Shown here: piece after piece, positions 1-58,140 of the stretch | How the letters are laid out: every line of letters begins with the position of its first letter | Position numbering within the stretch: position 1 is the stretch's first letter | NCBI GenBank assembly: GCA_963922205.1 | Contig: CAWUHX010000014.1 | Coordinates: forward strand, 1,548,001 to 1,612,000 | DNA length: 64,000 bases | Reading direction: 5' to 3' | DNA from: Romanomermis culicivorax | Lineage: Eukaryota; Nematoda; Enoplea; Mermithida; Mermithidae | Translations under genes and position numbers: made by a program | Notes under the pieces: model-generated | Told to the model about the DNA's origin: nothing | The model's database searches: none | What the model saw: the letters and a program-made list of their open reading frames with translations, nothing else

Positions 1-597
1 TAACGATTTATGCACAAATTAAATCGAAAAATGCCAAATTTGAAAATGAATTTAAAACCATGTAAAGTCTGGGAAAAAATTTAAACGGAAAAATCAAAAG
101 TAAAATAGAAAGTTTCAAAAAACAAAGGAAAAGAGACAAATTTAAAAAAAATTGGTAGAATAGAAATTTGGGAAAAATATTGAAAAAAGTGAAAAACAGT
201 GAAAACTTGGGCGACAAATTTAGAAAAGTTAGAATTTAAAAAAAATAGAACAACAAGAAAATTCAAGAAACGATGCTAAAATAGAGAAAATCAGTTAAAA
301 AGTTGACGTTAGAAGTTACAAGAATTTAAATATCCGGAAAAATGCAGTACCTACCTACACGAGAATTTTGAAAAAAAAATCGTAAATAAAAGTTGCAGTG
401 ACATTTACCATAGAAAATAATTTAACAAAAACCAAAAATTCCAAGAAAACACCACAAAATGAGAAAAAAAGCGAAATTAGAGACAGATTTTAAAGAAAAT
501 CTCCAAAAACAAAAAAAACAGGAGAAAAAATGCAAAATTAAACAAAAATCACCAAAATGTTGAAAATTGAAGGAAAAATTTAGAGAAAAAATCACAC

Positions 598-745
598 CAA
601 TCGAAGCCAAAACTTTTTGCCCGGCGCTGCAACGACCCCGCATGTCCAATTCGACGCCGTTCACCGTCATAACAACGCGATAATTGTAAGCTCGGCGCCT
701 ATTGTCCGAAGAGGACGCCGTTTCTGACGACGATTCCGCTCTAAT
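598..745 (-). CDS. RAD50: RAD50 exon 24, ABC signature motif (copy X)
   Basis: This 148-nt exon encodes an acidic-serine stretch, then NYRVVM, then the RAD50 signature region [14 protein letters not shown]. In the dimer this motif contacts the ATP bound to the partner subunit. The donor follows the first base of a codon, which is completed in exon 25. The same exon in contig Y is 35592-35739. Confidence 0.93.
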
Positions 746-9700: not shown

Positions 9701-11823
9701 TTTTGACGTCATTTACATCAATTTCTTGTTTAATTTTGCTTAATTTTCCCTCTAAATTTGACCTAAAATTATAAATTTCGACGAAAATTTCGCACTAAAA
9801 ATTGTAAAAATTTCTAAAACCTCAATTCCGAATTCGACACACCGCCGAAACGATCTTCTAATTCCCGATCGTATTTCTCCAATAAATCGTCGCGTTTTTG
9901 CTTTTTGGATTCGAAATCTTCGTTCAGATTGGCCAATTTTAATCGAATTCCGCTAGATTTTTGTAGCTCGAAGTATAATTTTTGTAATTTTTGTAGCTAA
10001 AATATCAATAATAAGAAATCTTCAATTATCTACATGCATTCTGTTTTTCACAGATGTATCGGTTACCCCGACTCGAAACAAGACCCGAAATAAACCGACC
10101 ATCTTATAGGAATCGGATCTGATATTCTTGAAATTTTGGCCTCGGATCTGGACCCGATATTTTTAAGATATGCTACTCGATACTAGAGATGTGTATCAGG
10201 TACCCGGATTTGAAACAAGACCCGAAAGTTCCCGTCCATTTTGTTGGACCCGGACAAGACCCGATAAAAAAAAAGTTTGGACCTGGACCGGATATTCTTA
10301 TAATTTTGGATCCGGACCCGGAACTGATATTCTTAAAATTTTGGACCCGGATCTGGACCCGATATTTTCAAAATATGCTGCCCGATACTAGTTATCAGGT
10401 ACCCGAGCATGAAACAAGTCCCGAAATTACCCGACCATTTTGGACCCGAACCGGATATTCTTAAAACTTTGGACCTGGACTCAGAACCGATATTCTTAAA
10501 ATTTTCGACCGGACCCGGAACCGGTATTCTTAAAATTTTGGACCCTGACCTGAACCAGACATTTTAAAAATATATGCTACACGATATTAGAGATCTATCA
10601 GGTACATGGATACGAAACAAGACCCGAATTTACCCGACGATTTTGTTGGACCCAGATCTGAACTCCAAATTCTTAGCATATTGGCCCCGGACCTGGAGCT
10701 GATACGCAACCAGATACTAGAGATCAGTTAGCAGGTCCCGAAACAAAACCCGAAATTATCCGACCATTTGGTTGGACCCGGACGGGGATCCGATGTTCTT
10801 AAAACTCTGGAACCGGTCCGGGACTCTACCCGATATTCTTAAATTTTTGAATCTTGACCTGATATTTTGAAAATATGCTACCCGATACACCCCTAACTAT
10901 ATTCTACACATAATATATTACTTTCTTTTCTAATTTTTGTTTTTCTTCGTTTAAACTACAAATTTCTTTTTTGGTTTTTTCTTCGTCGAAATCATTCATC
11001 GAAAATTCAATTTTGGATTTTAAATCGTTAATTTCTTCGTCCAATTCATCTAATCTAAAAATTTGAGAAAAATTTTTAAAAAATCGATAATCGATCGATT
11101 TCGCTCACAATTTTCGAGAAGTTTCGATTTCTTGTAATTTTAATTGCATTGATTTTAAATTCGTATCGATTTTTTGCAAATTTTCTTCTTTAAAACGTAA
11201 ATTAGCTTTAAATTCCGATTCGGCGCCTATAGCTTTTTGTACTTCGGCGTCCAAAATGGCTTCTTTTTCGGCGAATTCTATCTGAACATTCGAAACTTTT
11301 GAATTTAAAAAATAATTCAAAATTTATGTGAATTTACCTTTTTAGATTCGATTTCTGCTTTCAATTTTTTCAACGCCCTATCAATTTGATTTAGAGATTC
11401 CTTGTCGTCGTCACTATCTTTAAAAAAATCGAATATTTGTGAAAATTTGAAAAATTTTCTTCCCCAAAACTTACATTTCAAATCCAATTTTTCCGATAAC
11501 ATTTTGATCATTTTACTCTTTTCCGCTATTTTGCTTTTAAAATTCTGAGAAACATTTGTCTTAAAAATGTAAAATTCTGAGAAAATTCTTTCATTACGCA
11601 AATTTCCGCTTCAATTTTGCCTTTCTCTATTATTTTACGATTTTTCGATTTATTCAAATCTTCGATTTCACGATCAAAATCGCGTTTAGAATCCTCTAAC
11701 TTTAAATGAAAAATTTCAATTATTAACAATTGAAAATTTTTAAATTTTACTCGAATTTTCATCGCTCGCTTTTGATCGCAAACTTTTTGAAAATTATTTA
11801 ATTCTTGGCGTAATTTTTGGCAA
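598..11823 (-). CDS. RAD50: RAD50, haplotype copy X (exons 10 to 24, partial)
   Basis: Middle and late part of the RAD50 DNA-repair ATPase, read on the minus strand. Exons from 5' to 3' of the gene: 11751-11823 (cut by the gap), 11598-11699, 11475-11544, 11338-11417, 11109-11281, 10922-11054, 9821-9996, 9589-9762, 9308-9538, 7481-7690, 7201-7422, 5265-5734, 3557-3732, 1520-1857, 598-745. Every junction keeps GT..AG and phase. The exons encode the ascending coiled coil, the zinc hook, the descending coiled coil and the ABC signature. Exon 17 (9589-9762) is one base shorter than in copy Y, in a T run near 9643, and this breaks the frame there. The last two exons would lie left of position 1. 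The coding assignment rests on the order of recognisable RAD50 motifs. Contig-end overlap shows this copy belongs to the same haplotype as contig Z. Confidence 0.93.
1255..1420 (+). repeat. polypurine tract in RAD50 intron 23 (copy X)
   Basis: About 165 bp of almost pure A/G on the plus strand, which is C/T on the RAD50 coding strand, made of irregular AAAAG and GAAAA units. The allelic copy at 36240-36420 differs by small unit-length changes. Confidence 0.8.
3036..3330 (-). repeat. GGGTCC/ATGTATCGGG intronic repeat (copy X, locus 1)
   Basis: Degenerate units built from ATGTATCGGGTCC, AATATCGGGTCCGGGTCC and a terminal GCCCGATACATGTCT. The outer ends are inverted relative to each other. The orientation is opposite to the copy at 10050-10905. 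The allelic counterpart is 37936-38225. Confidence 0.75.
3765..5220 (+). repeat. 1.45-kb polypurine tract in RAD50 intron 21 (copy X)
   Basis: Almost continuous A/G with scattered C and rare T, built from AAAAG, GAAAC, GAAGA and AAGGA units. On the transcribed (minus) gene strand it is polypyrimidine. It fills nearly all of the intron between exons 21 and 22. The long Phe/Ser/Leu-rich open frames it creates on the minus strand are composition artefacts. The allelic tract is 38650-40130. Confidence 0.85.
5265..5734 (-). CDS. RAD50: RAD50 exon 21, arginine-rich coiled coil (copy X)
   Basis: Largest RAD50 exon (470 nt, 156 codons plus two bases). It encodes charged heptad-like helix from the descending arm of the coiled coil. 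Unlike the Lys/Asn-rich, AT-rich neighbouring exons it uses Arg (CGA, CGT, CGC) and Asp heavily and is locally GC-rich, with many GACGTC and CGACG words. The allelic exon is 40156-40625, with the same length. It is bounded by a TTGAAG acceptor and a GTAAAA donor. Confidence 0.9.
8342..8795. mobile_element. hAT-like MITE, polymorphic between haplotypes
   Basis: A 454-bp element with perfect 11-bp terminal inverted repeats, CATACATGTAA at 8342-8352 and TTACATGTATG at 8785-8795. It is flanked by an 8-bp target-site duplication, ATCTCGAC, at 8334-8341 and 8796-8803. Contig Y carries a single ATCTCGAC at 43428-43435 and no insert, so the empty site is preserved. The interior holds long C and G runs and a GGCGC-TTC-GCGCC hairpin near 8583. 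The 8-bp duplication fits the hAT superfamily. There is no transposase, so it is non-autonomous. It sits in RAD50 intron 18. Confidence 0.92.
9308..9538 (-). CDS. RAD50: RAD50 exon 18, zinc hook (copy X)
   Basis: This 77-codon exon carries the zinc hook KPCCPLCKR, with the CPLC cysteines at about residues 684-687 of the assembled protein. Two RAD50 coiled coils join at this site through a shared zinc ion. The exon is one codon longer than the allelic exon 43939-44166, which lacks a Gly codon near the start of the exon. Confidence 0.95.
10050..10905 (+). repeat. GGGTCC/ATGTATCGGG intronic repeat array (copy X, locus 2)
   Basis: About four or five degenerate units of roughly 190 bp in RAD50 intron 15. 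Each has a start like TATCAGGTACCCGGA, a GAAACAAGACCCGAAA segment, GACCATTTTGTTGGACCCG, ATATTCTTAAAATTTTGGAC, and an end like TATGCTACCCGATAC. The allelic array is 44678-45495, with small indels. Confidence 0.8.
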
Positions 11824-11923
11824 NNNNNNNNNNNNNNNNNNNNNNNNNNNNNNNNNNNNNNNNNNNNNNNNNNNNNNNNNNNNNNNNNNNNNNNNNNNNN
11901 NNNNNNNNNNNNNNNNNNNNNNN
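11824..11923. other. assembly gap of 100 N
   Basis: Exactly 100 N. It joins contig X, cut in RAD50 exon 10, to contig Y, which starts in unrelated retroelement sequence. The true continuation of X is in contig Z from 51006. Confidence 0.98.
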
Positions 11924-12449
11924 TTATCTCCACTGAGCACTAGCCAAGTTGCTCATTTTTCCGGCCAAACAAGCCAAAATTTTACTGTTGACACATATAA
12001 CACCGTACTTTGCAGATCACATTGCTTATCTCTAGGGCCTCAAATTTTAATTTTATTTACTTTCCTTTTTATTTCTCCGTCCCTATGCGTCGTGTGTGAC
12101 CCAATTAATATAAATTTTCCACCTAATAAATTTTCTTATCTCCAAAATCAATTCAATAAAAACTTATAACCCCATTTCTTTTCTTTCCCCTTTCTAAACA
12201 AACAAATTACAATTTATCCTTTTTCCTACCAAAAAAAACCCCAAACAAACAAAACTTTCTCTTTTCACTTCTATTCAAATTTTCAAAAACCAAAACTTTT
12301 TCTTTATCGGCCACACATACGTCATAGTGGCAAACCTTCAGTAGGTCATTCTTATTATTTTTTTTCCACTACTGTACGGTTTTCTTCTTTTCTTTCTCTC
12401 TTTTCATTCTGGGTGGTTGCAAGTGGTGAGAACCTTACCGGTTGGGACC

Positions 12450-13280
12450 ACTGACGTCAGCAACAACTACATATTGGGTTGTTATGAGGTGTTGTGTCTT
12501 GTGCGACCCCCACCTCTGCCGTCCGCAACTACCTCACATGCTGCTGTTGCACTGAGGCTTGACTAGCGGGGTCCTGCTTCTGACGTCAGCAATGGCCACA
12601 TATCAGGTGGTCATTCAGGGGTTGAAGGTTCTCCGTATCCTCCCCCTGCGTCTGCAACAGCTGCATCCCTAGCTGTTGCTTTAAGGGGTGGGTGGCCCTC
12701 CGGCTCTACCTCTGACGTCAGCAATGGCAACGTAACAGGTTGTTATTGCAGGATGGTGACCGTATGGCACTGTCCTCTTGACGTCTGCAACAGCAGAGGC
12801 TCGTGTTGTTGCACTAGGATTGGTCGATTATTCCGACTTCAGTCCTTGACGTCAGCAACAACAATGCATCGTATTGTTGTTCGTAGATGTGAGGCCTTAC
12901 AAACTGCACATCTGGCGTCTGCAACAACTGCATCTCATATCATTGTCGTAGGATAACTGAGACTCAGCTATTACCTTTTGACGTCAGCAACGGCGATGCT
13001 CCGTGTTGTCGTAGCAAGGTTGCTGGCCTAGGGCCCTATCTACTGATGTCCACAATGATAAATCTCTATTCCAGTATCGGAATTAAGACTGTACAGTCTT
13101 ACTCTGGCGTCAGCAACGGCGATGCCCCGTATTGCCGTAAAGAGTTTGTAGCCGCAGGCTCTTACTCTTGGCGTACATACTGCAATATGAGATTATGGCA
13201 CTTACATCCCAGTTACCTGAGGTCAGCACCGAGTGTGGTGGTGTGTATCACATCTTTTGACGTCAGCACCGGGTTACTGT
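12450..13280 (+). repeat. tandem array of about 13 stem-loops, ~66-nt period
   Basis: Each unit starts with a version of TGACGTCAGCAAC and continues into a hairpin. Clear stems: 12591-12599 with 12607-12615; 12654-12662 with 12671-12679 (GCAACAGCT/AGCTGTTGC); 12721-12731 with 12739-12749 (11 pairs); 12787-12795 with 12804-12812; 12857-12865 with 12873-12881 (AACAACAAT/ATTGTTGTT); 12990-12998 with 13004-13012; 13116-13123 with 13131-13138. Arm sequences differ between units yet stay paired, allowing G-U. Units near 13040 and 13170 are degenerate. No convincing protein frame runs through the array. It lies in the leader of the retroelement. Confidence 0.82.
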
Positions 13281-13799
13281 GGGTTCCCAAGATGCCACTT
13301 GAGTTCTAGGTGATGATTGTAGTATTATTCTCTCACCTACAGCTCTTGTTCTAGGGTTGTGTCTGTGTGCCACTGGTGCCTGGGAAACATCAGTAGACAT
13401 ACTCACGCAACCTGAGATGCAACCAGTCCGTGGCACTGATCAAGTTGTCCGCAAGGGTAGCGGCACTGATGGATCAGCACGTGACTCCTCTTCTAAGCTT
13501 TAACTGCAGGTTCGAACGGGTTTACACTCGGCCTCAGCTGGGTTGGTTGTTCAACATACGCAACCGTTAGGCAGTTGCAGTCAGTACTGCCTGTGTCTAA
13601 CAACTGCAAGGGTTGTCAACCTTCCTGTAAATTTCTTATCTAAATTCTCGCATTTCTTTCTCATTTATGATCTTCTTTAGTGTCCCCCACCAGAATAATT
13701 CCTCAGGAATTACGGCACAGCCACTGGTTGGGCCTAAGGTGTAAAAGACCCCCCTGTATTCTTTTCTTTACACTCAAACGCCTTCGTTAGCTGGCCTAA

Positions 13800-13935
13800 T
13801 AATGTCCGCACTAGAGTCGCCCTTAATCCTGAGTCCGCCTCCGTTGGTTTGTCCCTTAGCATAATATTACCGCTAGTCCGCCTAAGCGAAGGTGTTCGAG
13901 TCCGCCTAAACACATTACAACTAAGTCCGCCTTAG
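13800..13935 (+). repeat. AGTCCGCCT short repeats in the element leader
   Basis: Four close copies of AGTCCGCCT at about 13831, 13874, 13900 and 13924, spaced 20-45 bp, with GTCCGC and GTCGCCC variants just upstream. No protein frame is supported here. Function unknown. Confidence 0.55.
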
Positions 13936-14189
13936 CTCCTCACTTTACACTCATTTATTCGAGACAGACTGTACCCCTGATCTCAAGATGCGTTGAGCCT
14001 AGCCTCGATTCATAGGAGGAAGCCTGCATTTCCCCACCTCCACCACCGGCACAGCTGGGCAAGGACCCCCATGCCCTTTTACTGACTGAGTGTGTCAGAA
14101 TAGCACCCTGGTACCTGGTGCTCTTATATCTCAACTGGTGACCTGCGATCCTCACTTCATCTCAGTGAACGGAAACCCGGCCCCCAGCT

Positions 14190-14199
14190 GTATATAATA
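14190..14199 (+). promoter_or_regulatory. TATA-like box upstream of gag
   Basis: GTATATAATA in a GC-rich context, about 650 bp upstream of the first gag coding exon. It could be the element's promoter. The probable 3' LTR does not contain this sequence, so it is not simply the U3 promoter of that LTR. Confidence 0.35.
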
Positions 14200-14840
14200 C
14201 TCCTGGAGAGTACCCGTTCTGTTCAAAACGCGCATTCCCGTTTTTGGGCACGGTTGTAGCATACACGCGAATGACGTCCTCCCGGGATCCTCCTGTCTAG
14301 TCATCACACTTTTCAGAGTTCGCAATTGCTCCTAGTGAGTGAGGCCGATTGCGTAATAGTGCGACTCCCTTTGCGTAGTCTGGTTTGTAAACTAATTTTG
14401 TCCCTATCTATTAGCACCCACTAAGTTTACTTTAAGTTGTCCCCTTTACTTATTAATTCTTAAGCTACTCCATGCGCTACTCCTGGTGAGTAGGACTTTG
14501 TCGGTTACGAGCCCTCCCATATCCCAAAGTTTGTAAACTAGTACAACGGACTTAACCTCCAGATAAAATTCCCTTTTGAGCGGGTTTATCCGTACGCCCT
14601 CACGTCGGTTCCTTAATTTTATGGTTTGGAATTCCACCACTTTCTTTCAAATGTATTATACTTTTGGTTCAAATAACCGGGTCTTGCCCCATTTATCTCT
14701 AAAGTTTGGGTATATCTATCCCTCTCTTTACACTCGGGTTATCCCCTCTTTACCTCATAGGTGACCAGATAAATTCCCTTCTGAGTCAACCTATTTCTCC
14801 GTCTGGCTGTTCTGAGAGCTAAAACCTTGTCCTTTTCTAG

Positions 14841-15214
14841 CCCCATCGCTGAGTGGCCGCTAGATATTGAAAAGAACAAGCGTTACAGCCTCAACACGCC
14901 GTCGCGCAAACGATCTCGTACTTCCCGCGCTTCCTCGCCACGCGACTACAAAAGTAACTCTTACTTTACTCCTACAAAATAGAGACACCTAGACGTTCCT
15001 GTCGACTTAGTACTAAGTTTAAAGGGACAAGTGAACCCCTCTCTATTCAGTTTGATCGAATAACTTCACAGGCACGATCATCAGTCTTAGATACCTTACA
15101 GGAAGACGAATTCTCATCTATGAAGTCAGAAATTGATTTACCTTCACAGATTGAGAATAGGTCCAAGCTGCATTTGAGAATGCCCTTGGACCACTCAACC
15201 AAAAGCTAGAGGCT
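14841..15214 (+). pseudogene. upstream coding part of gag, frame-broken
   Basis: A possible exon that begins after an acceptor-like TTTTCTAG at 14833-14840. It encodes a basic Ser/Arg-rich stretch and then an acidic amphipathic stretch leading toward the gag start at 15215. The open frame stops at 14980-14982, continues in another frame, and shifts again near 15155. Codon content stays protein-like across both breaks, so the real N-terminus of Gag probably lies here and 15215 is an internal methionine. Both breaks fall in short single-base runs. Confidence 0.5.
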
Positions 15215-17460
15215 ATGAATGGCAGAAGGCACCCTCCTGTGTCCAGCTTCATGGCCCCTCCCGCCTTTTCAGGTGCTTTTGGTGAGTCTATAACGGATTT
15301 TATATCCCACTTGACCCGCTTCCTTACACTTCAAGGGGTAACAGAAGCGGATCATGCATATAAAATCGCGTTTTTGGAGTCTTGCCTCACAGGTCCTGCT
15401 CTGGCATCCTACCGGGACTTCAGCAGTGGTACTCCGCAGCCTACCCGCTACGAAGAGTTCACGGCTTTTCTTAGGAGAGACTTTCCAGTAGGGCGTGATT
15501 CAGATCTGCACCAGCAGTTGATCCAGGATCGCCTGCAGAAGCCGACTGAATCCGCGATAGTCTACCTTGAGCACCTTAAGAGACTGTCCAGGGTGGCTTA
15601 TCCGGATCTCGCGACTGACGTTAGGGATTCTATTATTAAACCTATCTTTCTAAGAGGGTTGAGACCAGTCCTCAGAGATAGTATTAAGTTCAGGGAGTTT
15701 ACAACTCTTGAAGAGACGCTCAAAGCAGCCTGTTACGCGGAATCACAGATTTTTCGGGATGAGATTAGGTACACTGCCCCATCTAATGCTGTTTTCTCTT
15801 CAGAACAAAGGACCGCCGACAACGTCAGGTCAATGTCGAATCAAAGGAGCACCGCTCAACGTCCGTCGGCCACCCCATCCGACGAGGTTCGACGTTTACA
15901 ATCGGAGATGGCCCGGCTCACGGCTCACGTTGCGCGACTTACGGCTCAGCAATCGGCGCCACCTTCGAGAAATTCGACGCCGTCATCGACGCCGTTGACG
16001 CGTGTCCAGACCGCCGGCAATCGCCCGTCAGGGGCACATCTACAGATGTGCTCCTACCATGGACGCTGCACCCACAACGACGCTACTTGCCGGGCGCAAA
16101 ATCCCGATAGCGCCGGCCCTAGCACCGCCTCCGCCACCGGCGCCAGCCGTTGCTATTTTTGTCAAACGAGGGCGCACCCGACTGACCGATGCGACAGACC
16201 CTGCCCGCATTGCCGAAAACTACGAGTGCACCGGGCAACAGCTTGCCCCAATCGAAATTCGACACTGCCTGGTGAGACTAATTTTGATAACTCTGGTTAT
16301 TCTCCTCAGGAGGCAAGTGGAAATTTTCGGAGGTATGCTAATCCAACTCCTCACGGGATAGGGAACCAATATCGGTCACCTCCACGGCAAAATAATGCTG
16401 TAGGGGTTACCGACGGTCTTCTTCACCCAGATTTATTTGATCTGGATGATGAAGTTTTGGCTGAACACCTGGCGGATCGCTCACAACTGTGTTATCCTGT
16501 CTGTGTAATCAGTATTGGTTTTTCAGCTACGGCAGTGGTTTCGGCGACCCCGTTGTCGACTTTTCCGCCGCCACCACCGAAATATGCGACGCCGGTCAAC
16601 GTAAACCCGTCAGCGACACCGAAAACGACTGGCAACGTCAGCGTAATCGCGTCGTATCGACCGACGGAAGATACAGCGGCGCCACCGGCACGTGTTATCA
16701 ACCAGGGACCGCCGCCCGGAATTCCCACGGACTCCGCGTTGGAGGTTGTCGGTCAACTGGAATCGATGAATCTGATAGGTAAACTGCCTTCTTTTTCTGA
16801 AGTTTCAAGTTCACAAGACAGATATCTTTACAAGTCTCCGGCTTTACTGATTTCTTGCTTACAGATTCCTCATCCGTCACCGACGCGATGCGGGCTGTTT
16901 GGTCGACCGACTTGGCCAAAAAGCATCCGCACCTCCCCTGGGCGCTACTCAACGAGCCGTTCGAGGTTGAGGCGCTTACGGCCGCCGACGTCATGCTATC
17001 GGCACCGGCGGTGTTGCGGATTTTGGGACCCGACGTCGCTCGACGGGCGCTCGAGTTTATCGCCGACGGAACTATTCGCGCCACCCCGGTGGACAAGATC
17101 CTGTTGGACGGTGAACCGTCGTCGCCGGCAGTGGACGCCGTCCGCCGCGCTGTGGAAAAGGCCAGTCGCAACGTGCGGCCCACAGCAGTTGTTGCCACGT
17201 CACCGACGACAACAACGACGGGAGCCCAAACTTTGGCGGCGATTGCGCCTCAGCAACCGGTCGCCAACGCCTTTGGAGAACCGTTGCCCGCCGTTCACAA
17301 CGCCGTCAACGTCACCGAGGCGTCGCCATTTCCGACGGCTACCGTCCCGCGGTCCCCGAAGATTGGCGTTCTTCAAGAAGTCCACCCCGGAGGAGGCTTG
17401 GTCATCGACTTCCCCGGAGAGGAGCCCGCGTCGTCCGACGACGACGACGTCGAAGAATGA
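15215..17460 (+). CDS. gag: Gag protein, apparently spliced (15215-16778, 16865-17460)
   Basis: The N-terminal half matches a retrotransposon Gag (capsid-like) domain, rich in helix. A short coiled coil follows at about 15880-15960. Then come zinc knuckles: one canonical CX2CX4HX4C (16151-16192), a CX2CX5HX4C just after it, and a Cys/His cluster at 16046-16090. A proline-rich stretch leads to 16778. A GT..AG intron (16779-16864) joins codon-in-phase to another frame that stays open to TGA at 17458-17460 and ends in an acidic tail. Unspliced, the original frame is also open and runs into the envelope module. The spliced product reads as more protein-like than the Arg/Pro-rich alternative frame. 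Gag would assemble the particle and bind RNA. Confidence 0.7.
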
Positions 17461-20400
17461 AGCCGCCCGACGGGTGAAAAATGTAAATTTTGGTGTAAAT
17501 TTGCAGACACCGTTTGTAAATATTTTGTTTGTATTAAATTGGGCCTTCGTGACACTACTGTTCTTAGGAATGAGCTCTGCAACACATGCTACTCAATACC
17601 AATTTTGTGGTCTTTCAAGAAGCGGTCATCCACTTGAGTTACCTCAAAAAGTTGAATGCAAACCACCAAAATCTTCGTGGAGTCCACGACGCATGAATGT
17701 TACAGTATATGTACCTATTTCCGATCCAATCACGACTAAAGCATGGAAATGTACCCTACGGAATCCTAAGGTATGCACGAACACTGGTTTTTTCGGATCT
17801 AGGGGCATTACTGCGGACGTCATTACTACTCAGCATCTCGCGCCTGCGGCGTGTACACTAGCACATCGCACAAAGGTGTTTGGTTTACAAAAGCTCGTGG
17901 AAATATGTCCTGGCTTTTATAGCACTAACCAAACACTGGAGGTGATGTACTCTTGGTGCTGCAATGACGTCTGCAAGACAGTGACTAACCTTTTCATCGA
18001 GGAGGGACAGGTCGCTTCGTGGGATGGCACTACAGCTCTAAGTACCTTAGGAGATGTAGGTGGATGCAGTCCCACTGCAGGTCAATGCACTACTCTAGAC
18101 GGGGTAATTGTTTGGCCTGCCACAAACTTTACAGCACAGTGCCATTATCGGCCACAAGGTAATTACACTGCGTCTGTATCAGGGAACCACATCATCATCG
18201 ATGATTTGCAGGTTGCCCTGAAGATCCCGGGAAACTCTCGTGTATTTCGACTGTGTCCTGACCTCCGGTTGAATACAGTACGAACGGATCAGGGTCTTCT
18301 TCTACGCATCCACGGAAGATTTAATCTGACCCAAAGGTTATTCGGATTGGCAAAGGACTCCGTCCCTGACCCCGTCAATGCTAAACTGAATTACCTGGCT
18401 CAGCAGATCAAAGAGTCGGAAATTAACAATTTTCGATTCATGTGGCTAGAGTTGTGTTCTCACGCTCAACGCTACCTTGATCTGACTTGGCAGTTGCTTC
18501 GTTTTGACCCTACACTAGGAGCCCGGGCATTCCTTCAGAGGAATGACCTGACGGCGGAATTTACGGGTGAAGCACTGACAATATGGCCGTGTCAAAAGAT
18601 CAACGCCACTTATGTCTATCATTCGTACCGAGTGGGAGACACCTGTTACAAGTATCTACCCGTACAGGTTGGCGGTACCATTTATTTTGCCACCCCCGGT
18701 GGCCCAGATCTCAATAAATTCAGTCCAAAGGTGCCGTGTGACCACCACTTTACAGGAATTTTCCGAAATCGCTCTGGCTGGTTTACTGAATCTGGCACGG
18801 TCCATGTGAGCCACATTCCGCTTGAACTGTTCTGGAAGCAGCGATTCAACGTCACTCACTTTGACGCTCCTGCGCTCTTTCATGACCAGTTGGCGATGAC
18901 CCCTTCAAGTTTTGCTTTCTTTAAACAGTACGTTTACAAGACTGAGCAAATTGAAGCAGTCTTGAACCGGTTGGTAAACTATACAGCTGGTTTATCCCTA
19001 CAACCAGATACCCTGTATCAGGCGGTTGCAGGGGTAGGGACTGACATCAGAGCCTCACTGGAAGGTGTTGGTCTGGCAGCAAACCATGTGATTACTGGTC
19101 AGCAGCACAACCTCATGCAAGGCTTACAGTCTCTCTTGAGCGGACCAGTGCAGCTAATCTTTAACACACTTATTGCCCTGGCAGTACTGGCCGGTACAGG
19201 ATTTCTCATCTACGTTGGGATCTCCTATTACCTCAGCTACCGCCTGCGGAAAAGACAGGTTCGGTTTGTTAGCCAATACTCGCCATTGAACCTCCTCCGG
19301 AAAGTTCAGCGTTGGGTAGGTTTTCATTACGTGCAGAACGATGTGCCAACTCAGTTAGACAGGATCACTTCGTGTTTTGTCGTACTGGTTGACCACAAGG
19401 AAACGCCAGCTTTCCTTGATACTGGTTGTCCACGGACTATCATTAGTCAACGCCTTCACAAAGCGCTGATCAAAGAGAGTCCGAAGGCGGCGATGGCTTT
19501 CCAGCAGCATCACGACTTTAATCCATTGATGAGTATCAATGGTAAAGCCGTACATACTCTCCTTTCAGGACCGTATGAGATAATGTTGCCTGGAACCCGT
19601 CAGCCACACACACGAGTGGATATACATCTCCATGTGTGTAAGACTACGTCTCCTTTCTGGGCACCGGTCGATCTGATTCTTGGATTGGACTTTTTAGAAC
19701 AATTCCAGAATATTACGTTTGACTACCAACAGCATGTCCGCCGATTGAATGCGGTAGAACTGCCACTTCTGTTGACAGCAGCCGAGATTGATCAAGTCGA
19801 ACCCTGGTGGGAGAACACACGTTCCCTATCAAGGGCCTCCCACAGGTCCGGGTCTCGCTCACGATCAAGGACTTCGTCTCTTTCTCGGCCACACTCGCGA
19901 GCTTCCTCCATTGCCTCATCCCGTGGGTCAACCAGAGGAAGTAGGACCTCTTCTAGACGGGCTAGTGGTCATTCCATGGCCAGGTCAGGGTCAAACTGCC
20001 CTCGACCACCGCCTGGAAACTCTCCAGTTACACTAGAGAAGGGCCGTTTTCGCGAGCCTAGTGATTCTGATGCACCTGCATCACCTGTACTAGAGGTGCC
20101 ACCACTCTCTGATGTTGAGGTTGAATCACTAGGAGCTACTCAGAGCTCAGGAGAAAGGTCAGATCATGTACTCACTGTTCAAATCCACCCAACTCCTGAG
20201 GCCAATCCGGAAACGTCGGTTGGCTATGCTCTGGTAGGTTTACTCAGGCGCACTGGCTTACCCATACCAAGACGAACCAATACGCCAGAGTCGAGCTTTG
20301 ATGACTCTGTACCTGACCCAGGTCATGTAGTATCAGCCTTCTACCCCACTGAAATGAGGACCCCTCATATCAAGGTTCTACTGAACAATTGGGTAGAGGC

Positions 20401-21688
20401 CAAAGCTCTAATTGATACTGGAGCAGTTTTCTCGCTCCTGGATCACAAGTTGGCGGTTCAGTTACCCGACTTGGTACTCACAGAGACTAGGGCTCGCCCC
20501 ATAGCAGCCAATGGGTCCCCGATTCTACTGCTAGGCTCTGCCTATGTCACGGTGACAGTGGCTGATGTCTCTGAACGGATTCAAGTCCAGGTTCAAGAGA
20601 ATTGTTCAGCTGAATTAGTCTTGGGGACGAACTTCCTCGGACGTTTCAATTGTGTCAGCTTGAGCTGGGAGAAATCCTTTCTCCAGTTCAAGGAACTTCG
20701 AGTTCCGTGTGAAGGCCTCATCCACAATCCACCTTCTGCTCGCGGGGCACTACCCTTGCAGGAGTTGATTGTCCTTGAGCCCCGCTCGCTCACACAATTC
20801 ACTGCACCCGTACCTTCAATATATGCAACTGTACCCGAAGTAGCTTTTTTCCCTAAGCCCCTTTTGGGTCAACAACGTAATGTATACTTTGCTGGTACTG
20901 TGAGTACTGTGACCAATGGTCGCATACCCCTACAGGTAGTTAACCCAAGTACACACGCTGTGGTTCTCTACCCGCACACAACCATCGGTCATGTGCAGAT
21001 GCATACTGATTCCTTACAGGGATCGGCGGTCAAGGCTGATACCATTCTTGACCGTAGGTGGGTTGAAGCCAATGCTGTGATATCTTCAGATATCTCCTCA
21101 CAGGATAAAACAGCGTTGCTCGATCTGCTGGTCGCATTTACTGACCTCTACGCTGTTGATGAAAAGGACACAGGTTCCACTGACCTCGTGCACCATGAGA
21201 TCAGCACGGGTGACGCTCGCCCAGTCCGCCGTTTCCCTTACCGCACCGCGCCCAAGGAAAAGGATCTCATCATACAAGAGGTCAAAGCGCTCCAAGAGAA
21301 AGGTATTATTCGGCCTAGCACTTCTCCCTGGGCTACTAACACCGTCTTGGTTCGCAAGAAAAATGGGTCACACCGGATGTGTGTTGATTTTCGTGGTCTC
21401 AACGAGGTCACGAAAAAGGATGTCTACCCTCTCCCACGGATTGATGATATCCTGGACACACTCAAGGGTATGAAATACTTTACTACCCTTGACCAGGCTA
21501 ACGCCTACTGGTCCATACCTATTGCCGAGGCAGACAAGGAAAAAACGGCGTTTAATACACCTATTGGACTTTACGAGTTCAACTATCTGCCTTTTGGTCT
21601 CTGCAATGCCCCTGGGACGTTTCAAACGCCTCATGGATCTGCTTCTTACAGGACTGCAGTGGCGCACTGCACTGACCTATCTCGATGA
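15215..21688 (+). CDS. 2157-codon gag-env-protease-RT open frame
   Basis: One uninterrupted frame covers gag, the envelope module, both protease-like domains and the first part of reverse transcriptase up to the fingers and palm. The first catalytic Asp of RT (21491-21493) is in this frame. The frame leaves the RT sequence near 21625, reads about 20 unrelated residues and stops at 21688. The RT remainder continues in the next frame. The stretch 16779-17506 in this frame is Arg/Pro-rich and is probably intronic or read in another frame in life. Confidence 0.75.
16779..16864 (+). other. candidate 86-nt intron in gag
   Basis: It starts GTAAACTG and ends TTCTTGCTTACAG, a good metazoan acceptor. 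Its length is not a multiple of three. Removal moves translation from the long gag-env-pol frame into the only other open frame downstream, which suggests a choice between two products. Confidence 0.65.
17507..19275 (+). CDS. env: envelope-like glycoprotein module
   Basis: In the same frame as the downstream protease. An acceptor-like TTTGCAG ends at 17506. The first residues form a hydrophobic signal-peptide-like stretch (about 17512-17590). The ectodomain has many cysteines and at least eight Asn-X-Ser/Thr sites. A conserved-looking helical block with [11 protein letters not shown] and [12 protein letters not shown] lies near 18460-18540. A transmembrane segment is at about 19148-19233, followed by a short basic tail (RLRKRQVR). 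It resembles glycoproteins of negative-strand RNA viruses of the chuvirus type that LTR elements have captured, but that family assignment is tentative. The position before protease is unusual. The start may depend on splicing at 17507. Confidence 0.72.
19320..19790 (+). CDS. retropepsin-like domain 1 (DTGC)
   Basis: Directly after the envelope tail, in the same open frame. It has the aspartic-protease motif [12 protein letters not shown] (DTG at 19418-19426) and the second hydrophobic motif [11 protein letters not shown] near 19673. Cys follows DTG where Ala or Ser is usual. It could be the active protease, an inactive relative or a clipped-off domain. A second such domain lies about 1 kb downstream. 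Confidence 0.65.
19815..19990 (+). CDS. Arg-Ser-rich linker between the two protease domains
   Basis: About 55 residues dominated by Ser and Arg in RS and SR pairs, such as [15 protein letters not shown]. It looks like an RS domain or a basic nucleic-acid-binding linker and is followed by an acidic, proline-rich stretch to about 20330. It stays in frame between the two retropepsin-like domains. Confidence 0.6.
20340..20690 (+). CDS. retropepsin-like domain 2 (DTGA)
   Basis: It carries [13 protein letters not shown] (DTGA at 20414-20425) and [11 protein letters not shown] near 20620, the standard pair of motifs of Ty3/gypsy protease. It directly precedes the RT connection region, which is the usual place for the pol protease. 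This is the more likely functional protease of the two. Confidence 0.75.
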
Positions 21689-24014
21689 CATCTTGGTGTT
21701 CGGGAACTCTCACACCCAGATGCTTGAGCGCCTGACGGATGTGTTTACGCGTCTCCGTCAGGGTGGAATGAAGCTCAGACTGAGCAAGTGCAAGTTTTCG
21801 CACTCTGAGGTAGAATATCTCGGGTACCGCATCTCACAGAAAGGTCTCGAACCAGACAAAGTCAAATTGGCTGCCGTCCAGGATCTACCCATTCCGCAAA
21901 ACGCTAAAGACATCAAGTCTTTTCTTGGTCTTGTGTCTTATTATAGGCGTTTCATCCCTGGTTGCGCTCGGCTCAGCGAGCCGCTGACCAAGCTCTTACG
22001 GAAGGAAGTTACCTTCCAGTGGTCAAAACCTCAGCAATCGGCGTTCGACGAACTCCGAAGGCTGTTGTTGAACCCTCCTGTCCTGCGCCATCCGGACTTT
22101 ACGAAATCCTTTATACTTCAAACTGATGCAAGTATTTCGGGAATAGGAGCAGTTCTAAGCCAGTTAGACGAGAATGGATACGACCATCCTGTTGCGTACG
22201 CCAGTCGAGGGTTAACAGCAGCTGAGAAAAACTACACTATTACGGAGTTAGAGACTCTCGCTGTTGTCCATTTCGTCAAGCACTTTCGGCCATACCTCTT
22301 TCAACATGAGGTGGTCGTTCAGACCAACCACACTGCTGTTAAAGCTGTGTTGGAAAAACCGAACCCTTCGTCCCGGATAGCTCGGTGGGGCCTCGCGTTA
22401 GCTGAATTCAAACTGACTATTCGGCCGCGGAAAGGTCGGTCTAATGGTAATGCCGACGCATTATCACGCCTTCCTGATCCTAATTCCCTTGCCGGGGAGA
22501 GTATTGATGATATTCCCCTATACAGACCCGAGGGAGAAGTTATGATGATTTCCGATGGTGCTCAGCGCCTGGCGAACTCATCCCAAAGGACCACCAATGG
22601 TGCGCAGCACCTGGCCAGGTCTGAGTCTTATGCAGAGATATCACAGGATGCGCAGCACCATGACCTTCTCGCAGCTCAATTCGAGGATCTGGAATTAGCC
22701 TCCATTCTCAGGTCACTAAAACCCTACGGTGATCAGAATGATGTTAATGGCTACCACCTGTTGGATAACATCCTTCAGAAGTGGACAGGTGAGTCCAACA
22801 AGATTGTTGTCCCTCGTTCAATGGTTACTACCATTATTGAGGCTCATCACAACGACATTCTTGCTGGACACTTTGGTGCGAAACGTACCGCGAGGCTTAT
22901 AGCCCGCAGGTACCACTGGCCTTCCCTCAGTGCGGACGTCAAGTCCTTTTGTCAGCGGTGTGATCTTTGCCAACGGAATAAACCTGCGAGACAGAAGACC
23001 CGTGCAACTCTGAAACCGATCTCCATTACGGGTCCGTTTCATCGAGTCGGTGTCGACTGTATGGGACCAATGACCACTAGTGAAAACGGAAACCGATTTA
23101 TTGTAGTTTTTATAGACTACTTTACTAAATGGGTTGAAGCTTTCGCTACTCCGGACATCACTGCGCAAACTATAGCTCGACTTTTTGTTACTCAAATCGT
23201 CTGCAGACATGGGGCGCCGCAGATTCTTCAGTCTGATCGTGGTACTGATTTCACGTCCAAACTGATGACTGAAATCACTGCCATTTGTTCAACTAAGAAA
23301 ATCCACTCCACCGCTTATCATCCCATGACAAACGGAGAAGTGGAAAGAGCTAACCAAACGCTAGCCACACGGTTACGTATGTATGTCCACCAAGGTCATA
23401 CTGATTGGGATGAACACCTGCCGTACTCTGTGTTCGCTGTCAACATTAGCATGAATGAGTCCACAGGGTATTCACCCTTTGAGCTCATGTATGGTCGTAC
23501 CCCCATGCTACCTGTTGATGCAGCGCTCTCATTCAACCCTCCGGCCCATATCATAGACGTTTCTACTTATGATATGGAGGTCAAACGGCATTTTACTAAT
23601 GCCTTGACTTTGATCCAGAGCAAAATTGAGAGATCACAAGCGGCTTATGCTAGGTCCTACGACCGCATGGCACGAGATGTCTCATACAAGGTTGGGGATC
23701 AAGTGCTCAAACTGCGCACTACTGGAAAACGTGGTCTAACGCCCAAATTATTACCCATTTATGATGGCCCCTACCTTGTCACGAATGTGGCTTATCCTAA
23801 TGTCACCATTCGACTTGAGGCTGACCAAGAGGATACTGTGCATGTCAATCAGCTTAGACGCTACGTGTCACCAGCTCAGCCTACAGATGAAGAGGAGATA
23901 CCTTCCACTTCCCCGGTCATCGAGACGGCACCTTTGTTGATCCCGTCAACAAATAGAGATTTTACACAAGATCTCATTGACCCACATCTTGATGCGGAGG
24001 TCGCCGACCCGTAA
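21627..24014 (+). CDS. pol: Pol, C-terminal part: RT (YLDD), RNase H, integrase
   Basis: Continues RT one frame over from the preceding open frame; the frame is open from 21489, but RT homology starts near 21627. YLDD is at 21678-21689. The thumb, with FLGLVSYYRRF, and a connection region follow. RNase H is at about 22110-22470, with QTDAS, ELETLAVV and NADALSR. Integrase begins with an H2C2 finger (about 22848-22980) and has catalytic residues in GVDCMGP, SDRGTDF (Asp at 23235-23237) and GEVERAN (Glu at 23343-23345), an exact D35E spacing. A GPY/F-like module (YDGPYLV) is near 23761. Stop at 24012-24014. Domain order RT-RH-INT is that of Ty3/gypsy. The join to the upstream frame is broken near 21625. 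Confidence 0.9.
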   Translation, partial: RLMDLLLTGLQWRTALTYLDDILVFGNSHTQMLERLTDVFTRLRQGGMKLRLSKCKFSHSEVEYLGYRISQKGLEPDKVKLAAVQDLPIPQNAKDIKSFLGLVSYYRRFIPGCARLSEPLTKLLRKEVTFQWSKPQQSAFDELRRLLLNPPVLRHPDFTKSFILQTDASISGIGAVLSQLDENGYDHPVAYASRGLTAAEKNYTITELETLAVVHFVKHFRPYLFQHEVVVQTNHTAVKAVLEKPNPSSRIARWGLALAEFKLTIRPRKGRSNGNADALSRLPDPNSLAGESIDDIPLYRPEGEVMMISDGAQRLANSSQRTTNGAQHLARSESYAEISQDAQHHDLLAAQFEDLELASILRSLKPYGDQNDVNGYHLLDNILQKWTGESNKIVVPRSMVTTIIEAHHNDILAGHFGAKRTARLIARRYHWPSLSADVKSFCQRCDLCQRNKPARQKTRATLKPISITGPFHRVGVDCMGPMTTSENGNRFIVVFIDYFTKWVEAFATPDITAQTIARLFVTQIVCRHGAPQILQSDRGTDFTSKLMTEITAICSTKKIHSTAYHPMTNGEVERANQTLATRLRMYVHQGHTDWDEHLPYSVFAVNISMNESTGYSPFELMYGRTPMLPVDAALSFNPPAHIIDVSTYDMEVKRHFTNALTLIQSKIERSQAAYARSYDRMARDVSYKVGDQVLKLRTTGKRGLTPKLLPIYDGPYLVTNVAYPNVTIRLEADQEDTVHVNQLRRYVSPAQPTDEEEIPSTSPVIETAPLLIPSTNRDFTQDLIDPHLDAEVADP

Positions 24015-24044: not shown

Positions 24045-24477
24045 ACGGGGTCGTCCTTTTTCGAAGGACCGCCGTGCCCCTCACAAATTACCCACTTCTG
24101 TTCCAAGCTGGAATAGCAGTGTAAAGAAGAGAATGAGCAGCGATCAATGCATCTAAACTAGGGTATTGCCTCACATTGTAGGCGCATCCATGCGATAGCC
24201 TATATCTCGCCTCTAAAATTTTTCTTTTAGTCTCGTTTCAGATTTCACAAATCAACCGACAATTGGCAACTTCACCGAAGGGATCAAATGACGTCAGCAA
24301 CTTCACGCATCTCCAATGGACGTCAGCAACTCCACGCAACATTGACACAATTTCACAAACCAGAACATACCGAAAAACCACTGAACCAGCAACCGCTCGC
24401 CGCCACCCTCACCTGAACGTTTGACCGTCGCAGCCGGCACAAGGACGAGGACGCCCTTTTTCGAAGGACCGCCGTGT
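24045..24477 (+). repeat. direct repeat with hairpin, copies 400 bp apart
   Basis: CCTTTTTCGAAGGACCGCCG occurs at 24055-24074 and again at 24455-24474. The first copy folds as GTCCTT-TTTCG-AAGGAC (24053-24069). It lies in the 3' untranslated region of the element, just after the integrase stop. Confidence 0.65.
24286..24345 (+). repeat. two GACGTCAGCAAC motifs in the 3' untranslated region
   Basis: GACGTCAGCAACTTCACGC and GACGTCAGCAACTCCACGC, about 35 bp apart. They share the unit header of the leader stem-loop array at 12450-13280, linking the two ends of the element, but have no obvious hairpin arms. Confidence 0.65.
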
Positions 24478-24973
24478 CACGTGCCGACGGATTTCGTCGA
24501 ACGTCACGTGATTCACATCACAATTTTTCATTATGTTTTTCGTTATGTTTTTGTGTTACAGTAATTTACATCAATTTTGCGTTTCGTTTTTATACTTTTT
24601 ACATGCAATTTATGTGTGTACTTTTTATGTTTATTTCTGTTGCTTTTGCGCACATTTATTTCCGTTTCGATTTATTATTTTCAATCGCACACGTAGACTA
24701 CGGTATGTGCCCGCTAGTCAAGAATTTCCGTTAAAGATAAGCTCTCCGAGCTCATCGCTGTAATTAGAGCACAACGTGCACTTCTTATCAGTAAAAACTA
24801 GCGACGTTTCACAACGTGAAATGACTAGTTGAAATTCTTCACTAGTGACGTTCCTATGTTAAGCATGGAGAGTGAAAACTCGCCCCAATGCTTAAAGTTG
24901 TGAACCGAAAATGTCTATGTGATCATAGGCATCTTCTGCAACGATTTCCGCTGCAGAAGTTAGCTTGGGGGAG

Positions 24974-25643
24974 TGTTAACTCCGCCCAAGGCATACTGTA
25001 GTCTATGGAGCCCTTTAAAAGGGCATGTTTTGTGTGTTTTTGGCGCACTCTCTTTGAGCCTAACTGGTTTTTCGTCGTTTAGCTTCACGTCGCGTCTGCC
25101 GTCGATATTTTTTATATATTTTATTGTTGTCAACTGCGCCTTGCCATACGTCGAATAAATTACCATATTTTCGTCCCCGACCTACACACCTACACTTACA
25201 CACGTCGCCTACAGTAACCCGACCGTAGGAACCCGTCGCCGTCGCCGTTAGTGTAGAGACCCGTCGCCCCTCGCCGAGGAAACGTTAATTGTCGCCGCCT
25301 GCCGTTTAGCAGCCGCCGAATCCCCACGCCGAATCGCTCGGAGTTCGTTCCCACATCGCCGTCTGTAGGACCCCGCGTTTGACCCCGAACCCGTCGCCCA
25401 GCGCCGAGTAACTTCAGAAGGAGTATCGTGAGTCCTCTCAGGGGTTATTATTGTTGAGGGTTTATTTGTGGGAGTCTCCCCTAAGCTAGTTTTCCCTCGG
25501 AAGGACCCTCAGTTAAGAAAGCCCTCGGACCCTTAAGGTCAGGGCCAATAAAGGGGATTTAGGTTAACAATCGGGTCCCCTACAGTAAGCCATTCCCCGA
25601 ATGGCACCGTCCCCCATTCCGTAGAATGAGGATTAGGGATTGA
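24974..25643 (+). repeat. probable 3' LTR
   Basis: A purine-rich tract (GGGGGAG, 24967-24973) is followed by TGTTAACTCCGCCC, a TATA-like CCTTTAAAAGGG near 25015, a polyadenylation signal AATAAA near 25154, GTCGCC-rich sequence, and a possible CA end near 25643. The 3' boundary is a guess because there is no second LTR in the window to compare with. Confidence 0.45.
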
Positions 25644-48889: not shown

Positions 48890-48954
48890 CTGAAAATATT
48901 GAAAAAATTTAAATTTCGACAAAAAGAGTTTTGAATCTACAATATACTATGAGA

Positions 48955-49515
48955 TGCATCGAATACCTGGACCCGACCGATACTAATCCCGATATTACCC
49001 GACCATTTTGTTGGACTCAAAACCGGACCCGATATTCTTAAAATTTTGGACCCTGACCTGAACCCGATATGCTGCCCGATACTAGAGACGTATCAGGTAC
49101 CCAGACTCGCAACAAGACCCGAACTTACCCGACCATTTTATTGGACCCCGACTCGGACTAGACATGCACGGCAAAAATTTTGCGGGGGGAGGGTCCTTGG
49201 ACTTTTTTTTTCAGGAGGTAAGGGGCGAGCAAAAAACAACAAAAAAGTTCTGCAAGCGTATTTTTTCATACAAAATATACACAAAAAATCATCAAACAGC
49301 TCTCGTGGAAAACGTTCAGGGGGGTGTTAGACGATTTTTTGGTCAGGGGGCGGCCAGGGTCTCAAATATGAGGGTTTACCCCCTACCCCGCCTATGTTGC
49401 ATGTATAACTCAAAACCCCCATATTCTCGAAGTTTTGGACCCCAACCCAATATTCTTAAAAATTTTGGACCCGGACGCCCCGATATTTTCAAAATATGCT
49501 ACACAATACATCTCT
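48955..49515 (+). repeat. GGGTCC repeat with G-rich insert (copy Y, locus 3)
   Basis: Intron 2 of RAD50. Two partial GGGTCC-family units flank a G-rich segment (about 49165-49400) that starts near ACATGCACGG and ends near TTGCATGTAT, which hints at a short inverted repeat. The allelic copy is 53567-54120. From 49516 to 50570 only AT-rich intron sequence is seen. Confidence 0.65.
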
Positions 49516-50670: not shown

Positions 50671-50696
50671 AAGCAGTGGTATCAACGCAGAGTACT
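50671..50696 (+). other. SMART-type PCR adapter left in the assembly
   Basis: Begins AAGCAGTGGTATCAACGCAG and continues AGTACT, 26 bases. It is the amplification adapter of SMART and ultra-low-input long-read libraries. It abuts the gap and is followed at once by RAD50 exon 12, so it is a synthetic contig end and not biology. Confidence 0.97.
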
Positions 50697-56090: not shown

Positions 56091-56113
56091 GACGATTGCA
56101 AAAAAATTGGAAC

Positions 56114-56119
56114 TCTGAA
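56114..56119 (-). promoter_or_regulatory. splice-acceptor-like site 24 nt upstream of the RAD50 ATG
   Basis: TTTTTTCAG ends at 56115 on the minus strand, 24 nt before the start codon. It could close a 5'-untranslated intron or accept a spliced leader. The sequence alone does not decide between them. Confidence 0.4.
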
Positions 56120-57980: not shown

Positions 57981-58140
57981 CCGCCAACTCTGATCTTGCG
58001 TTCATGTGGTAAGCAAAAAATTGAAAACCGCCAAAACCACGGCAAAAACCGCCAAATAGTCAAACCGCCGGAAAAATCGCCAGAGGGGACTGAAAACAGC
58101 GAAAATGGCGGGAAATAGCCGCGTCTGGCAACACTGGTTT

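What the first reader, a model, noticed from the sequence alone, without database searches (positions are those of the whole stretch)
15215..21688. Envelope module placed between gag and protease in one open frame
Retroviruses and Ty3-type elements with an envelope normally carry it after integrase. Here a signal-peptide-like segment, a glycosylated Cys-rich ectodomain and a transmembrane helix (17507-19275) precede protease and RT in the same frame. Either Env is made as an Env-Pol fusion that must be cut, or splicing selects Env or Pol. I know of no described element with this order.
Basis: partly seen in the sequence, partly recalled or inferred. Interest (0 to 1): 0.88.

Follow-up and report, generated by a model that had tools for sequence, protein, structure and literature searches.

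The report
Retroelement with envelope before its polymerase
A family of Ty3-type retroelements carries a virus-like envelope gene between gag and pol instead of after pol, fused to the polymerase part, and distant relatives share this order, so it is a real and apparently undescribed genome plan.

Summary
The envelope (17507-19276) is a class III, chuvirus/mononegavirus-type glycoprotein (PF24664, 6.5e-16), followed in the same frame by protease and RT. The order gag-Env-PR-RT-RH-IN recurs in 5 of 5 full-length relatives found (30-37% Env identity to the window; gag by Pfam in 4, by eye in one). The host genome holds at least 74 Env copies; six read at both ends have 1.44-kb LTR pairs, 96.6-99.6% identical.

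Variation among copies changes the reading. Env, its tail, two tandem proteases and the stretch after them form one frame under purifying selection, so Env is made fused to Pol. The gag-to-Env "one open frame" is incidental: an 86-nt intron (16779-16864), exactly missing from 1 of 60 copies, moves gag into another frame (X, 16865-17460). X is the constrained frame and ends in a TGA kept in 60 of 60. The gag/Env frame there is unconstrained; 15 of 60 copies carry stops in it.

Two hydrophobic segments would put Env outside and Pol inside. How Env-Pol translation starts (frameshift at the X stop, or splicing) is unresolved. New variant of a known kind.

The parts
11924..15119 (+). 5' leader (most of it); the 5' LTR and about the first 0.86 kb of leader would fall in the assembly gap 11824-11923
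   Evidence: 4 of the 6 five-prime pieces were placed on the window; all 4 match from 11924 on, 857-860 nt after their LTR end
15120..16778 (+). gag, first coding exon (Ty3 capsid about 15287-15754, then a Cys/His-rich region by eye); this copy has a frame break near the start
   Evidence: Pfam PF19259 1.8e-7; 6 variable sites in 15100-15249 among 20 copies; N/S 0.56 without CpG sites for 16107-16778; ATG at 15120 chosen by inspection
16779..16864 (+). 86-nt GT-AG intron in gag
   Evidence: exactly absent from 1 of 60 copies, which joins 16778 to 16865; in the other 59 the donor is GT in 58 and the acceptor AG in 59; no coding constraint in any frame; phase joins gag to frame X
16865..17460 (+). 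second gag exon X, other frame, acidic C-terminus DDDDVEE and stop TGA; no known domain
   Evidence: N/S 0.44 (0.10 for shared variants) in X frame without CpG sites; open in 58 of 58 gap-free copies, TGA in 60 of 60; no Pfam hit
17513..17569 (+). hydrophobic segment 1, signal-peptide or internal signal-anchor like
   Evidence: hydropathy; a segment at the same place in P0002, P0003, P0004, P0005, P0039, P0072, P0086 and P0112, not in P0001
17591..19132 (+). Env ectodomain, class III (gB/VSV-G/chuvirus) type
   Evidence: PF24664 6.5e-16; alignment profile matches herpes gB chains, best 6e-4; N/S 0.36, shared variants 0.08, for 17591-18107; 18108-19056 not tested
19133..19225 (+). hydrophobic segment 2, membrane anchor, followed by a basic tail
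   Evidence: hydropathy 19133-19189, end by eye; charge +5 after it
19382..19735 (+). retropepsin-like domain PR1 (DTG)
   Evidence: 30.3 bits to an HMM of the relatives' proteases, but under Pfam's cut-offs (best 19.1 bits against 28.2); N/S 0.15
19746..20330 (+). Arg/Ser-rich linker between the two proteases
   Evidence: N/S 0.35
20342..20680 (+). retropepsin domain PR2 (DTG)
   Evidence: 42.9 bits, PF13975 1.4e-10; N/S 0.20
21350..21833 (+). reverse transcriptase, split over two frames in this copy
   Evidence: PF00078 in both frames
22020..22409 (+). RNase H
   Evidence: PF17919/PF17917
22809..24014 (+). integrase (H2C2 22809-22985, core 23082-23324) and end of pol
   Evidence: PF17921, PF00665
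24475..25913 (+). 3' LTR (TGTCACGTG...TTTAATGTGACA)
   Evidence: match to the LTR of other copies

Best explanation
This is a young Ty3-type LTR retroelement family that acquired a class III negative-strand-RNA-virus-type glycoprotein and carries it between gag and protease. Shown: the domain order, its recurrence in relatives, the separate constraint on Gag-X and on Env-protease, and the gag intron. Inferred: a spliced mRNA makes Gag-X, which stops at 17460; unspliced RNA is what usually gets packaged, since 59 of 60 copies read keep the intron. Env is made only as an Env-Pol fusion. Segment 1 threads Env into the ER and segment 2 stops it, so Gag (if attached) and Pol stay in the cytosol. 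Signal peptidase and the element's own protease then free the parts, as in a flavivirus or alphavirus polyprotein. Translation of Env-Pol begins most likely by a +1 shift at the conserved X stop (about 0.4), nearly as likely by a separately spliced mRNA (about 0.35).
For: Order in 5 of 5 full-length relatives (gag found by Pfam in 4, by eye in P0039) and consistent in 3 partial ones. At least 74 Env copies in the host genome. LTR pairs 96.6-99.6% identical in 6 of 6 copies read, all six chosen for long open frames, with 4-bp target duplications in 4 of 6. One copy of 60 lacks the intron exactly, joining 16778 to 16865. N/S against expectation without CpG sites, env/pol frame: Env 5' part 0.36, Env C-terminus with anchor 0.37, tail 0.31, PR1 0.15, linker 0.35, PR2 0.20, 20691-20907 0.27; X region 0.44 in frame X and 2.01 in the gag/Env frame. 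Stop codons in the X region: 10 positions in 15 of 60 copies for the gag/Env frame (14 of 58 without gaps), no copy for frame X. Segment 2 is followed by net positive charge in 7 of 7 proteins with sequence there, window included. For the frameshift: env-frame excess of silent variants over 17461-17590 (13 against 8.0 expected, p 0.019), the AG at 17506 absent in 5 of 61, and gag and Env in one frame in 6 of 6 relatives that include both.
Against: No transcript or protein data. The frameshift evidence is thin: 17461-17506 alone gives p 0.10, and over 17461-17590 the p rises to 0.36 if only variants in 4 or more copies count. No unusual RNA structure around the X stop (z -0.55), and GAA UGA A is not a shift site I know. 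Before the intronless copy was seen, the intron was only 8th of 314 GT-AG pairs by codon score. For shared variants alone the tail (n 5, p 0.12) and segment 1 (n 7, p 0.07) are not significant. Constraint was not tested in 18108-19056 or after 20907, so not in RT. The gag/Env frame is open more often than codon shuffles give (p 0.005). The element clade is not shown to be single: one clade is not rejected (p-AU 0.308) but not found either. P0001 has no hydrophobic segment before its Env.
Confidence: 0.65

Rival explanations
1. Env-Pol is translated from its own spliced mRNA, with a leader exon giving the start codon joined at the acceptor 17506/17507, as retroviruses make Env and foamy viruses make Pol (recalled).
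For: TTTGCAG|ACACCG sits just before the hydrophobic segment, with no in-frame ATG upstream of that segment. The element already uses splicing. P0004 starts at Met plus a signal-like segment and P0039 has a Met at the same place.
Against: The AG is lost in 5 of 61 sequences and the change is silent in the env frame; env-frame constraint may begin before 17507. Of the five best donors in 14900-17600 the three in gag have the wrong phase, worked out by hand; the leader before 14900 was not scanned.
Confidence: 0.35
2. Unspliced RNA is read straight through as one Gag-Env-Pol polyprotein in the gag/Env frame.
For: 13 of 74 copies lie in a 3018-codon frame with no stop reported (counted by hand). 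The frame is open more often than codon shuffles give (p 0.005; 0.034 the other way round). Relatives show one long frame.
Against: No constraint in that frame across 16865-17457 (N/S 2.01 without CpG sites; shared variants 4.09), no clear lack of stops (10 seen, 14.8 expected; non-CpG 3 against 4.1), 15 of 60 copies with a stop. Five of the 74 lie in 2265-2268-codon frames; the 4 of these 5 that were read each have their stop there.
Confidence: 0.12
3. The order is a chance insertion or assembly artefact of this locus.
For: A 100-N gap lies just upstream and the window has large duplications.
Against: 74 scored copies in the same genome and 5 full-length relatives elsewhere with the same order.
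Confidence: 0.01
4. The glycoprotein is no longer a fusogen but a membrane anchor that places Pol (and particles) at membranes.
For: No stop separates Env from protease in 8 of 8 proteins that include both (window, P0001, P0002, P0004, P0039, P0072, P0086, P0112).
Against: Full ectodomain with 16 shared Cys and strong constraint on the part tested.
Confidence: 0.12

Closest known systems
Errantiviruses and other env-bearing Ty3/gypsy elements (Metaviridae)
   Same: Ty3-type capsid, pol domain order PR-RT-RH-IN, captured viral envelope
   Different: Their env lies after integrase as a separate gene (recalled; passages of PMC10309623 and PMC5408684 give the position after pol as the usual one); here it lies before protease, fused to Pol
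Anakin (BEL/Pao with chuvirus glycoprotein; PMC7642597, passages)
   Same: Envelope from the same broad glycoprotein group
   Different: BEL/Pao pol, not Ty3; the passages say other env-bearing BEL/Pao elements have it downstream of the polyprotein; Anakin's own order was not in the passages seen
Atlas virus of hookworm (PMC9094657, passages)
   Same: Envelope is part of one long polyprotein (2828 aa Gag-Pol-Env)
   Different: Env at the C-terminal end, class II, BEL/Pao; no intron
P0051-like chromodomain Ty3 elements
   Same: Class III envelope related to this one (HMM 7e-18) in one frame with gag and pol
   Different: Env after integrase and chromodomain
Cer1 of C. elegans (PMC10309623, passages)
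   Same: Ty3-type, no stop between gag and pol, splicing makes a second product
   Different: Extra protein CERV lies after pol and is nuclear, not an envelope
Flavivirus/alphavirus structural polyproteins (recalled)
   Same: Cytosolic part, internal signal, lumenal glycoprotein, anchor, cytosolic part in one chain
   Different: Unrelated viruses; likeness of topology only

Membership tests
Ty3/gypsy (Metaviridae) | RT-RNase H-integrase order with Ty3-type domains | tested here: met
   Pfam order in the window and relatives
Ty3/gypsy (Metaviridae) | LTRs with TG...CA ends, short target duplication | tested here: met
   TGTCACG...GTGACA, LTR pair in 6 of 6 copies, 4-bp duplication in 4 of 6
Ty3/gypsy (Metaviridae) | Ty3-type capsid | tested here: met
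   PF19259 1.8e-7
Errantivirus | env as separate gene after integrase | tested here: not met
   Env before protease; only 460 nt between pol end 24014 and the LTR at 24475
Errantivirus | baculovirus F-type envelope (recalled) | tested here: not met
   Env matches PF24664 and weakly BDV_G, no F-protein family
Class III / Monjiviricetes fusion glycoprotein | profile match above curated cut-off | tested here: met
   57.9 bits against a cut-off of 27; gB structures at 6e-4 with a profile, none with the single sequence
Class III / Monjiviricetes fusion glycoprotein | predicted or solved fold | not testable with these tools
   structure prediction switched off
Class III / Monjiviricetes fusion glycoprotein | membrane fusion activity | not testable with these tools
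   needs an experiment
Gag-Env-Pol single-frame polyprotein | gag/Env frame is the coding frame throughout | tested here: not met
   X region constrained in another frame
Env-Pol fusion | one constrained frame from Env into protease | tested here: met
   N/S 0.15-0.37 without CpG sites, silent excess p at most 0.0205, in each of 7 parts (17591-18107 and six parts of 19057-20907)
Env-Pol fusion | the same constraint in RT and beyond | not tested
   no copies read after 20907 except the 3' ends

The most novel reading that the evidence does not exclude
A clade of envelope-carrying metaviruses in which Pol is carried into particles through the envelope: Env-Pol is one membrane-spanning protein with the glycoprotein outside and protease, RT and integrase inside, made apart from Gag-X, with an 86-nt intron in gag and a conserved stop deciding which product is made. 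Two tandem proteases, both constrained, would do the cutting, possibly as a single-chain dimer.
Probability: 0.35. Interest if true: 0.9.

Novelty: new variant of a known kind. Interest (0 to 1): 0.8.

Why it matters
Retroviruses and env-bearing retroelements are taught as gag-pol-env. A gag-env-pol lineage found in several distant elements shows the order is not fixed, gives a second way of carrying a captured envelope (inside a gag-pol element rather than behind it), and makes questions testable: how Gag, Env and Pol ratios are set, how Pol is packaged, and how a soluble enzyme set is kept on the right side of the membrane. The host genome has dozens of similar copies, and the six read at both ends have LTRs 96.6-99.6% alike, so transcripts may be obtainable.

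Tried and rejected
Assembly artefact or private insertion: rejected. Phlebovirus-type class II Env, my first guess: rejected by Pfam. Troyka, Anakin, Atlas, Cer1 and bdelloid elements as the same thing: rejected by layout as far as read. Gag-Env-Pol read through in one frame: my own first model; it had p 0.005 in its favour and was dropped after the copy data. A shared 5' exon spliced to both gag and Env: the acceptor near 15050 is lost in 3 of 20 copies, so not adopted. RNA structure at the X stop: none. Viral and prokaryote contig collections, by a few peptide patterns each: no relatives. X against the 124 proteins held and Pfam: nothing convincing. No tRNA (bacterial code) or Rfam hit in the window. 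The LTR query returned nothing at all, not even itself, so it was a failed run; repeated, with no second LTR in the window.

Full report
What is there. The frame 15161-21688 is open for 2175 codons. Pfam places a Ty3 capsid, then a PF24664 Monjiviricetes fusion glycoprotein, then retropepsin and RT, with RT C-terminus, RNase H and integrase in the next frame to 24014. The envelope is class III in type: its family covers chuvirus and mononegavirus glycoproteins (reading of the family name, partly recalled), and a profile of the alignment matches herpesvirus gB structures, best 6e-4. The single sequence matched no solved structure.

Is the order private to this copy? No. A search with the Env part in long proteins gave four hits at 34-38% identity; a search of Env alone gave one more. 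A search with the pol part of P0002 listed the best 120 of 2302 hits; 5 of those 120 (P0002 itself included) carry PF24664. In all 5 Env lies before PR, RT, RH and IN; a gag-type domain lies before Env by Pfam in 4 (zinc-finger models in P0002, P0072 and P0112, capsid in P0086) and by eye in P0039. P0003 is gag-Env; P0001 is Env-PR; P0004 is Env, PR and the start of RT by eye. A home-made Env profile over the 124 proteins found 10; 9 are of this order or partial, and the tenth, P0051, has a related Env after integrase and a chromodomain. So related envelopes occur in both places. The pol tree neither shows nor rejects one clade for the window and the five (p-AU 0.308). P0002 and P0003 are close kin (Env 85% identical), so they are not independent.

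Copies in the host genome. The genome search answered once: 359 Mb, 74 scored Env matches at 96-100% (a lower bound by the tool's own note). I counted by hand 13 of the 74 in a 3018-codon frame with no stop reported and 5 in such frames of 2265-2268 codons. Six copies, chosen for the 3018-codon frame, were read at both ends: LTR pairs of about 1.44 kb, 96.6-99.6% identical, with a 4-bp target duplication in 4 of 6. The window 3' LTR is 24475-25913; its leader begins inside the gap.

Which frames are used. I read the stretch around the gag-Env border from 60 of the other 73 copies (the best-scoring ones), the Env-PR border from 40, and the gag start from 20. With CpG sites left out, variants in Env (17591-18107), Env C-terminus with anchor, tail, PR1, linker, PR2 and 20691-20907 are mostly silent in the env/pol frame (ratios 0.36, 0.37, 0.31, 0.15, 0.35, 0.20, 0.27; p for silent excess at most 0.0205 in each). 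Counting only shared variants, the tail (n 5, p 0.12) is not significant and the Env C-terminus is at 0.0495. Segment 1 (17507-17590) is not significant alone (0.52, p 0.10). In the X region the silent frame is X (0.44; shared variants 0.10), while the gag/Env frame shows 2.01. The intron shows nothing in any frame. The end of gag shows 0.56. With CpG sites kept the picture is the same. Nothing was tested in 18108-19056 or in RT.

Stops and splice sites. Frame X has no stop codon in any copy; one variant would be a stop on the window's background but its copy has another codon there. The gag/Env frame has stops at 10 positions in 15 of 60 copies, 14 of the 58 without gaps. Six of the 10 are CGA in the window, so recurrent CpG decay is likely and sharing among copies is not proof of spread; the non-CpG count (3 against 4.1 expected) still shows no clear lack of stops. 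The X stop is TGA in 60 of 60. One copy lacks the 86-nt intron exactly, running from 16778 straight into 16865: the mark of a spliced RNA that was reverse transcribed, and the best single proof of the splice. In the other 59 the donor is GT in 58 and the acceptor AG in 59. Copies with gag/Env-frame stops are slightly more diverged from the window in the Env piece (0.023 for 15 copies against 0.018). Of the five copies in 2265-2268-codon frames four were read, and each has its stop in the X region.

Against this reading: the gag/Env frame is open in this copy more often than codon shuffles of frame X would give (p 0.005; 0.034 in reverse; 0 of 160 frame tests on equally long, overlapping stretches of the same ORF were open). 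I take it as chance or history, because the copies show no present constraint, but it is the best evidence for a read-through product. The relatives' single long frames may be coding or incidental; without their DNA I cannot tell. The linker of P0002 and P0003 is 42% identical against 70% for gag and 85% for Env.

How Env-Pol starts. There is no in-frame ATG before the first hydrophobic segment. A splice acceptor-like TTTGCAG lies at 17506, but its AG is lost in 5 of 61 sequences by a change that is silent in the env frame. Env-frame silent excess over 17461-17590 is 13 against 8.0 (p 0.019; 0.031 for shared variants; 0.36 for variants in 4 or more copies), and for 17461-17506 alone 6 against 3.7 (p 0.10). 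A +1 shift at GAA UGA A would enter the env frame exactly; Ty3 itself uses +1 shifting (recalled). I put the two at about 0.4 and 0.35.

Topology. In 8 proteins (window, P0002, P0003, P0004, P0039, P0072, P0086, P0112) a hydrophobic segment lies just before the ectodomain and another at its end; P0001 has the second but not the first, and P0005 is too short for the second. The charge after the second is +1 to +6 in 7 of 7 with sequence there. Before the first it is positive in 5 of 7 and negative in P0002 and P0003; P0004 has one residue there. Other hydrophobic stretches reported in these proteins fall in RT, in gag, in an N-terminal region or at the end of P0004. This fits Env outside, Gag and Pol inside.

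Two proteases. Both match a profile of the relatives' single protease (30.3 and 42.9 bits); PR1 stays under Pfam's cut-offs. The 7 relatives from which the profile was made have one each. Both are constrained. Their cooperation is inference.

Literature. Nine searches list, among the titles and abstract starts shown, no paper on env between gag and pol. Seen: abstract and first part of PMC12440569; passages of PMC7642597, PMC10309623, PMC8556966, PMC13172572, PMC9094657, PMC5408684; passages and the Results of PMC10084718, which reports chuvirus-type glycoproteins flanked by Gypsy fragments in insects without giving gene order in the text I saw. The held library is only part of the literature.

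Noticed in passing
window 1-11823 and 34986-46414; 46103-50570 and 50696-55233: Large duplications at about 93-97% identity; the first copy ends exactly at the 100-N gap, so the scaffold join beside the element may be wrong.
   Followed up: partly
window about 32614-32970 and 55884-56453, minus strand: Open frames that look like the C- and N-terminal ends of a RAD50 gene (by eye, recalled motifs), with coiled-coil-like pieces between.
   Followed up: no
window 12450-13270: Imperfect tandem repeats of about 66/132 nt built on TGACGTCAGCAAC in the element's leader; close forms of the motif twice near 24288-24335 in the 3' part (by eye).
   Followed up: no
P0051, P0070, P0082: Chromodomain Ty3 polyproteins with an envelope-like module after integrase in the same frame; P0070 and P0082 share 45% there but match no Env family, with two hydrophobic segments about 628 residues apart.
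   Followed up: partly
window 19382-20680: Two tandem constrained retropepsin-like domains with an Arg/Ser-rich linker; the 7 relatives tested have one.
   Followed up: yes
window 16865-17460: Protein X, about 198 residues, under constraint, with no known domain or relative found.
   Followed up: partly
L048: A copy of the element from which the 86-nt gag intron is exactly missing, as from reverse transcription of a spliced RNA.
   Followed up: partly
window 58060-58602, minus strand: Fragment that looks like a non-LTR reverse transcriptase (by eye).
   Followed up: no
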